In this document: positions 20,847 through 47,101 of the stretch, one piece after another | Layout of the letters: each line of letters starts with the position of its first letter | Numbering within the stretch: position 1 is the stretch's first letter | Assembly: GCA_025617745.1 (NCBI GenBank) | Contig: CM046853.1 | Coordinates: 32,167,313-32,231,312, forward strand | DNA: 64,000 bases | DNA from: Heliocidaris erythrogramma | Lineage: Eukaryota; Echinodermata; Echinoidea; Camarodonta; Echinometridae | Reading direction: 5' to 3' | Translations under genes and position numbers: made by a program | Notes under the pieces: model-generated | Database searches by the model: none | Seen by the model: only the letters and a program-made list of their open reading frames with translations | What the model was told of the DNA's origin: nothing

Positions 20847-20987
20847 CTAAGCGAAATATCCTTCGGGTATGATACAACGAAGATGATCGGTGTAACCAGC
20901 ATCCCGGGTCACGCCTTCCTGCCATCTCCCGTACAACCACTGGGGGCGGTATTCTGCTTTATTCGAGCAGGCGTACCAGACCTCCAC
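20847..20987 (-). CDS. Multi-EGF gene exon 16: C-terminus
   Basis: Phase-0 entry after ...TTCTAG. The exon encodes 46 residues starting [10 protein letters not shown] and containing a Trp/Tyr-rich stretch and a last cysteine in LRCIIPEG, then TAG. No similarity is recognised. Confidence 0.75.
   Translation of the reverse strand: MEVWYACSNKAEYRPQWLYGRWQEGVTRDAGYTDHLRCIIPEGYFA

Positions 20988-47101: not shown

What the first reader, a model, noticed from the sequence alone, without database searches (positions are those of the whole stretch)
20847..47101. Sixteen-exon, 1881-residue secreted EMI/EGF protein with no membrane anchor
Splice phases agree across all 16 coding exons and the total is exactly divisible by three. 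EMI plus many laminin-type EGF units is the MEGF6/10/11/Draper architecture. MEGF10/11/Draper carry a TM helix and signalling tail, and this gene has neither. It is either a MEGF6-type secreted form expanded to about 38 EGF units, or an echinoderm-specific soluble relative of an engulfment receptor.
Basis: partly seen in the sequence, partly recalled or inferred. Interest (0 to 1): 0.7.

Follow-up and report, generated by a model that had tools for sequence, protein, structure and literature searches.

The report
Tailless duplicate of an engulfment receptor
An echinoderm gene makes a long chain of EGF modules behind an EMI domain, like the receptors that swallow dead cells, but seems to have lost the membrane anchor and signalling tail that its next-door duplicate keeps, so it may work outside the cell.

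Summary
The gene is real and lies on the MINUS strand. Rebuilt independently, thirteen exons (47101 to 26024) give an unbroken signal-peptide-like start, an EMI domain above Pfam's cut-off and 38 EGF units (1738 aa). Its last three exons (143 aa) have no Pfam or PDB relative and no convincing one in the genome, and chance-level splice scores.

New evidence: the host is an echinoderm by its mitochondrial code. A tandem paralog (EMI-like exon, about 40 EGF units) lies upstream and ends inside the window (59636-56315) with a transmembrane helix, basic stop and NPLY tail. Two more paralogs have TM-like segments behind their EGF arrays. The window gene shows no such exon downstream. So it is most likely a duplicate of a Draper/MEGF10-like receptor that lost anchor and tail. 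MEGF6 is not favoured: PEAR1-type first EGF, no calcium-binding EGFs found.

'No membrane anchor' is not proven. Reading past the weak exon-15 donor gives a 19-residue hydrophobic C-terminus (chance 0.08-0.26% per place), as in GPI or short-tail anchoring. RNA evidence is decisive.

The parts
46950..47101 (-). exon 1: start codon, signal-peptide-like leader, start of EMI
   Evidence: GTGAGT donor, phase 2; no signal-peptide program was run
44634..44732 (-). exon 2: middle of EMI
   Evidence: only phase 2-2 candidate (30-200 nt) with a Cys above the splice limits between exons 1 and 3; the EMI HMM spans the joined exons; not found by the chain search
40679..40779 (-). exon 3: end of EMI (CCPGF...)
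38911..39006 (-). exon 4: PEAR1-like first EGF
   Evidence: PF23301, 60.1 bits, cut-off 37.5
33514..35770 (-). exon 5: giant exon of 2257 nt, laminin-type EGF units 1-17 and part of 18
32914..33009 (-). exon 6, EGF
32146..32307 (-). exon 7, EGF
30486..31138 (-). exon 8, EGF
29509..30282 (-). exon 9, EGF
29091..29305 (-). exon 10, EGF (weak donor, -3.7)
28456..28691 (-). exon 11, EGF
26882..27067 (-). exon 12, EGF
26024..26211 (-). exon 13, last EGF units; leaves in phase 1, as the neighbour's last chained EGF exon does
24900..25017 (-). putative exon 14, start of the 143-aa tail
   Evidence: no homology; GC contrast 0.15
21602..21773 (-). putative exon 15; weak donor (-0.2)
21515..21601 (-). 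read-through of exon 15: VNLYC, a 19-residue hydrophobic stretch, then ALDS and stop; ATTAAA at 21480
20847..20987 (-). putative exon 16, ends in TAG
   Evidence: acceptor 5.9
59514..59636 (-). tandem paralog: transmembrane exon with WRRRKR stop-transfer
58432..58582 (-). tandem paralog: cytoplasmic exon
   Evidence: phase-consistent
56315..56390 (-). tandem paralog: last exon, ...SFKNPLYADIVI and stop (NPxY)
   Evidence: phase-consistent

Best explanation
This is a tandem duplicate of a long Draper/MEGF10-like EMI-EGF receptor in an echinoderm. It kept the ligand-binding ectodomain (EMI plus 38 EGF units) and lost the transmembrane and NPxY exons that its neighbour keeps. Most likely the protein is secreted and acts outside the cell as a bridging molecule (opsonin) or decoy for the same kinds of target that the neighbouring receptor binds: apoptotic cells, debris, microbes or matrix. 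Shown: the ectodomain, the paralogy, and that the scans made here find no convincing TM or NPxY exon downstream. Inferred: secretion, ligand, and the bridging or decoy role.
For: 13 intact exons, 1738 codons without a stop. EMI above its cut-off. PEAR1-type first EGF above its cut-off. Same-strand upstream paralog with an EMI-like exon (32268445-32268158; its fragment scores 20 bits to PF07546, below the cut-off of 25), 22 chained EGF exons (1870 codons, 0 stops, 40 CxCxxG motifs), then TM and NPLY exons in consistent phase inside the window. Two other paralogs have TM-like segments behind their EGF frames, near C1:20427593 and C1:20440405; their splice sites were not modelled. The scan rule that finds all three of these TM segments (plus four other stretches in those regions) gives three stretches in window 26023-8000, at 21058, 15565 and 11228, none convincing. 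All 9 candidate TM exons lie in stretches repeated elsewhere in the window. tblastn of five TM or tail peptides of paralogs against window 26023-1: best E 0.059, on the other strand; the rest 1.0 or worse. No NPxY on the minus strand below 26 kb. The secreted Drosophila protein NimB4 is a precedent for a secreted relative that bridges corpses and phagocytes (passages of PMC10800375).
Against: The 3' end is not proven: exons 14-16 have no clear homology and chance-level splice scores. Read-through of exon 15 gives a hydrophobic C-terminus. The neighbour's own first EGF hits EGF_PEAR1L only below the cut-off (28.8 against 37.5). Matches of the window gene's N-terminal part to the neighbour's EGF exons are 39-47% identical, so the duplication is old and functions may have parted. 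No expression or ligand data.
Confidence: 0.5

Rival explanations
1. The protein is membrane-attached without a signalling tail. Exon 15 is the last exon and ends in a hydrophobic C-terminus used as a GPI signal or as a short-tail anchor.
For: Read-through of the weak exon-15 donor (-0.2) gives [19 protein letters not shown], then ALDS and stop. Such an ending occurs at 24 of 29855 non-coding positions and 4 of 1561 GT positions. An ATTAAA lies about 35 nt after the stop.
Against: All three frames of this T-rich stretch are hydrophobic, no basic residues follow, and I see no ideal omega+2 residue by eye (no GPI program run). I noticed it post hoc, among the read-throughs of exons 13, 14 and 15.
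Confidence: 0.25
2. It is a MEGF6-type matrix protein of the basement membrane, with no link to engulfment.
For: No convincing TM exon, many laminin-type EGFs. PMC7059952 (passages) reports MEGF6 orthologs in all superphyla and a need for megf6 in planarian basement membrane. The EMI segment CGWxxxxxC resembles recalled MEGF6 and EMI identity alone (0.24) is like that to PEAR1 and Draper.
Against: No EGF_CA hit at E<=0.01 in 1881 aa; N-terminus 51 bits to MEGF6 against 96-108 to the receptor branch (recalled sequences); tandem neighbour has TM and NPLY.
Confidence: 0.13
3. It is an ordinary receptor whose TM and tail exons were missed.
For: The three paralogs looked at have TM exons or TM-like segments. 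Exon 13 leaves in phase 1, as the neighbour's last chained EGF exon does.
Against: The window has no N. Scans down to 8 kb find no convincing TM exon and tblastn of paralog TM and tail peptides gives nothing below E 0.059.
Confidence: 0.12

Closest known systems
MEGF10/MEGF11/PEAR1/Draper/CED-1 engulfment receptors
   Same: Signal-like start, EMI, PEAR1-type first EGF, laminin-type EGF array; the tandem neighbour also has TM and NPxY
   Different: No convincing TM and no NPxY found; 38 EGF units, more than in MEGF10 (about 17, recalled); a 2257-nt EGF exon
MEGF6
   Same: EMI plus many laminin-type EGFs; secreted (recalled)
   Different: No calcium-binding EGFs found after EMI; N-terminus less similar
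Secreted Nimrod proteins (Drosophila NimB4)
   Same: Secreted relative of phagocytic receptors with a bridging role
   Different: Functional likeness only; that NimB proteins have NIM repeats and no EMI is recalled, and no sequence comparison was made

Membership tests
MEGF10/PEAR1/Draper/CED-1 receptors | EMI domain at the N-terminus | tested here: met
   PF07546 31.2 bits, cut-off 25
MEGF10/PEAR1/Draper/CED-1 receptors | PEAR1-type EGF directly after EMI, then laminin-type EGFs | tested here: met
   PF23301 60.1 bits, cut-off 37.5; PF00053 227.1 bits, cut-off 21; other EGF-type models (hEGF, EGF_TEN, DSL) also pass theirs
MEGF10/PEAR1/Draper/CED-1 receptors | single transmembrane helix | tested here: inconclusive
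   No convincing TM exon in 26023-8000, but the exon-15 read-through is hydrophobic
MEGF10/PEAR1/Draper/CED-1 receptors | cytoplasmic tail with NPxY | tested here: not met
   No NPxY in any minus-strand frame below 26 kb; the neighbour has NPLY
MEGF6 | calcium-binding EGFs after EMI (recalled definition) | tested here: not met
   No EGF_CA family at E<=0.01 in the 1881-aa model
MEGF6 | no membrane anchor | tested here: inconclusive
   The 3' end is not settled
MEGF6 | groups with MEGF6 in a tree | not tested
   No eukaryotic sequence collection here; only pairwise scores to recalled sequences

The most novel reading that the evidence does not exclude
In this echinoderm, tandem duplication split an engulfment receptor into a signalling form and a tail-less form with a lineage-own C-terminal domain. 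The tail-less form is either shed as a soluble bridging molecule or decoy, or held on the cell by a GPI or short hydrophobic anchor, so that it tunes its neighbour's target recognition.
Probability: 0.35. Interest if true: 0.6.

Novelty: new variant of a known kind. Interest (0 to 1): 0.42.

Why it matters
MEGF10/Draper/CED-1 receptors clear corpses and debris across animals. Secreted partners are known in flies from another group of Nimrod proteins. A tail-less EMI-EGF duplicate directly beside its receptor would show how an animal makes a soluble opsonin or decoy from a receptor, and the pair could be tested together.

Tried and rejected
Synonymous-codon test for exons 14-16: little power, because proven exons score from -0.105 to 0.089 bits per codon. 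Splice-score null for the tail: chance level. Same-genome relatives of the tail: 5 matches at E<=10, three being the tail itself, two weak (E 0.49 and 4.0). Re-aligned against those two loci alone, the L009 one covers 48 residues at 27% identity and the L008 one has a stop; I take both as chance. Other EMI loci of the genome as MEGF relatives: of four hits over the cut-off, three were followed 30-40 kb downstream on the hit's strand and show no EGF array; the fourth (L004) was read only in its 3-kb locus. That search works exon by exon and listed neither the window gene's EMI exons nor the neighbour's. Ten long ORFs elsewhere in the window: no Pfam hit at E<=0.01. A general coding model trained on GPCR exons was planned but the search did not complete. 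Promoter scan: a bacterial-type scan, not meaningful here. A genome count of the neighbour's tail did not complete.

Full report
WHAT WAS CHECKED. The gene runs on the minus strand. Six-frame reading shows Cys-rich EGF-like minus-strand segments from 39 kb to 26 kb, including a 764-aa open segment at 35798-33507. From splice sites and the EGF cysteine pattern I rebuilt 13 exons from 47101 to 26024: all GT-AG, phases consistent, 1738 codons, no stop. Exon 2 was the only phase 2-2 candidate of 30-200 nt with a Cys above the limits used between exons 1 and 3. A chain search that scores codons and splice sites returned exons 3-13 with the same boundaries. It found exon 1 only in part and missed exon 2, and its codon table came from this gene, so it is partly circular.

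Searching for three further exons that end at the stop at 20847 and add exactly 431 nt gave 2 chains under the limits used.

DOMAINS. EMI: PF07546, 31.2 bits, cut-off 25. The first EGF is PF23301 EGF_PEAR1L, 60.1 bits, cut-off 37.5. The rest match laminin-type and related EGF models. No EGF_CA family is listed at E<=0.01. I count 38 EGF units, one after EMI plus 37 of 41-43 residues; mean pairwise identity among the 37 is 0.46 and the best pair 0.67, so this is not a fresh expansion. The leader looks like a signal peptide; no program for that was available.

THE LAST THREE EXONS. The 143-aa tail has no Pfam match at E<=10, no PDB match at E<=10 and in its own genome only itself and two weak matches (E 0.49 and 4.0; looked at and taken as chance). 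Its summed splice score, 11.1, is not special: the best chain of at least 140 aa reaches 11.1 or more in 8 of 12 half-overlapping control segments from 1-20 kb, two of those 8 visibly using SRCR coding sequence, and another chain in the same stretch scores 11.7. In its favour, the three exons are richer in GC than their flanks by 0.09-0.15; 12 of the 13 proven exons show 0.11 or more. The null fractions are 0.025, 0.05 and 0.094, n=159. I call the tail possible, not proven.

THE SURROUNDINGS DECIDE THE READING. The window lies at C1:32167313-32231312 of a 1.06-Gb genome of 26 contigs. Its COX1 reads AAA at Asn sites such as IYN and RMN, ATA at Ile sites, AGA as Ser and TGA as Trp (which residues belong there is recalled). 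That is the echinoderm and flatworm mitochondrial code, and the COX1 sequence looks echinoderm (recalled). So 'echinoderm' is supported.

A search with the N-terminal part gave 117 matches, 150 of 705 candidates being scored. Many lie just upstream on the same strand, at 39-47% identity. There I find a tandem paralog with an EMI-like exon at 32268445-32268158 (20 bits to PF07546 for a 41-residue piece, below the cut-off of 25) and 22 chained EGF exons at 32262084-32234502: 1870 codons, no stop, 40 CxCxxG motifs. Its first EGF hits EGF_PEAR1L at 28.8 bits, below the cut-off. It ends inside this window: a transmembrane exon at 59636-59514 with WRRRKR behind the helix, an exon at 58582-58432, and a last exon at 56390-56315 ending SFKNPLYADIVI. 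The phases of these three agree. I did not settle whether a linker exon lies before the TM exon. That the EGF exons and the tail exons are one gene is inferred from order, strand and phase. Two further paralogs, at C1:20.42-20.44 Mb, have long open EGF frames (975 and 852 aa) followed by TM-like segments. Their splice sites were not modelled; an NPTY reading frame lies downstream of one of them but was not joined.

The window gene shows no such parts. A scan for charge-free 20-residue hydrophobic stretches with Lys or Arg behind them finds the TM segments of all three paralogs, plus four other stretches in those regions. In window 26023-8000, minus strand, it finds three: 21058, in the CT-rich tract before exon 16; 15565, in a repeat; and 11228, weak. 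The 9 candidate TM exons all lie in stretches repeated elsewhere in the window. tblastn of five TM and tail peptides of the paralogs against 26023-1 gives a best E of 0.059, on the other strand, and 1.0 or worse for the other four. No NPxY lies on the minus strand below 26 kb. The next domains downstream are two SRCR domains at 6312-5986 and 5170-4847; a signal-peptide-like start lies at 10677, but whether it belongs to them was not tested.

A RESULT AGAINST 'NO ANCHOR'. If the weak exon-15 donor is not used, the frame runs into 19 hydrophobic residues, ALDS and a stop, with ATTAAA about 35 nt on. Such an ending occurs at 24 of 29855 non-coding positions and at 4 of 1561 GT positions. I saw it after the fact, among the read-throughs of exons 13-15, and all three frames there are hydrophobic because the stretch is T-rich. 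It is a serious rival, not a finding.

WHICH FAMILY. In EMI alone the identities are 0.31, 0.24, 0.23 and 0.24, so the EMI by itself does not decide; in the first two EGF units they are 0.45, 0.45, 0.45 and 0.29. Together with EGF_PEAR1L, the missing EGF_CA and the receptor neighbour, the receptor branch is favoured. Since NPxY was tested and not met, I do not file it as a receptor of that family. It is a relative with the same ectodomain.

HOW IT PROBABLY WORKS. The receptors are single-pass proteins whose tails signal through NPxY or ITAM motifs (PMC8092387, passages). The EMI domain of the relative NimA is needed for cell adhesion (PMC13076899, passages). A secreted Nimrod protein, NimB4, may bridge corpses and phagocytes (PMC10800375, passages). 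By analogy this protein would bind targets outside the cell and present them to, or hide them from, receptors such as its neighbour. That is inference. I saw no report of such an echinoderm protein in the listings of my six paper searches, which cover only open-licence papers.

GENE STRUCTURE. In the neighbour, 20 of 22 chained EGF exons are phase 1 on both sides. In the window gene only 3 of the 9 junctions from exon 4 to exon 13 are phase 1 and one exon carries 2257 nt. The two arrays have different intron histories; intron loss with later gain, or growth inside an exon, are both possible.

Noticed in passing
window 56315-59636, minus strand; L020, L044, L045, L043: 3' end of a tandem EMI-EGF receptor gene with TM helix and NPLY tail, most of which lies beyond the right edge of the window.
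   Followed up: yes
window 4847-6312, minus strand: Two SRCR domains above cut-off downstream of the EMI-EGF gene; a signal-peptide-like start at 10677 may or may not belong to them.
   Followed up: partly
window 33514-35770: 2257-nt exon coding for about 17 EGF units; paralogs elsewhere have open EGF frames of 975 and 852 aa.
   Followed up: partly
G000:C1:20422264-20447662 (L024, L028, L029, L039, L041, L042): Second cluster of EGF-array paralogs in opposite orientations, each followed by a TM-like segment.
   Followed up: partly
L014 3-1228: EMI exon followed by a Pro/Gly-rich segment and a hydrophobic helix with a basic tail: perhaps another EMI gene type.
   Followed up: no
window 12975-13919, 19139-20011, 39660-40576 and inverted 45100-46044: Roughly 0.9-kb dispersed repeat in four copies, mostly 93-99% alike where matched, in introns and flanks.
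   Followed up: no
L046 (G000:C24): COX1 with the echinoderm mitochondrial code; C24 may be the mitochondrial genome.
   Followed up: partly
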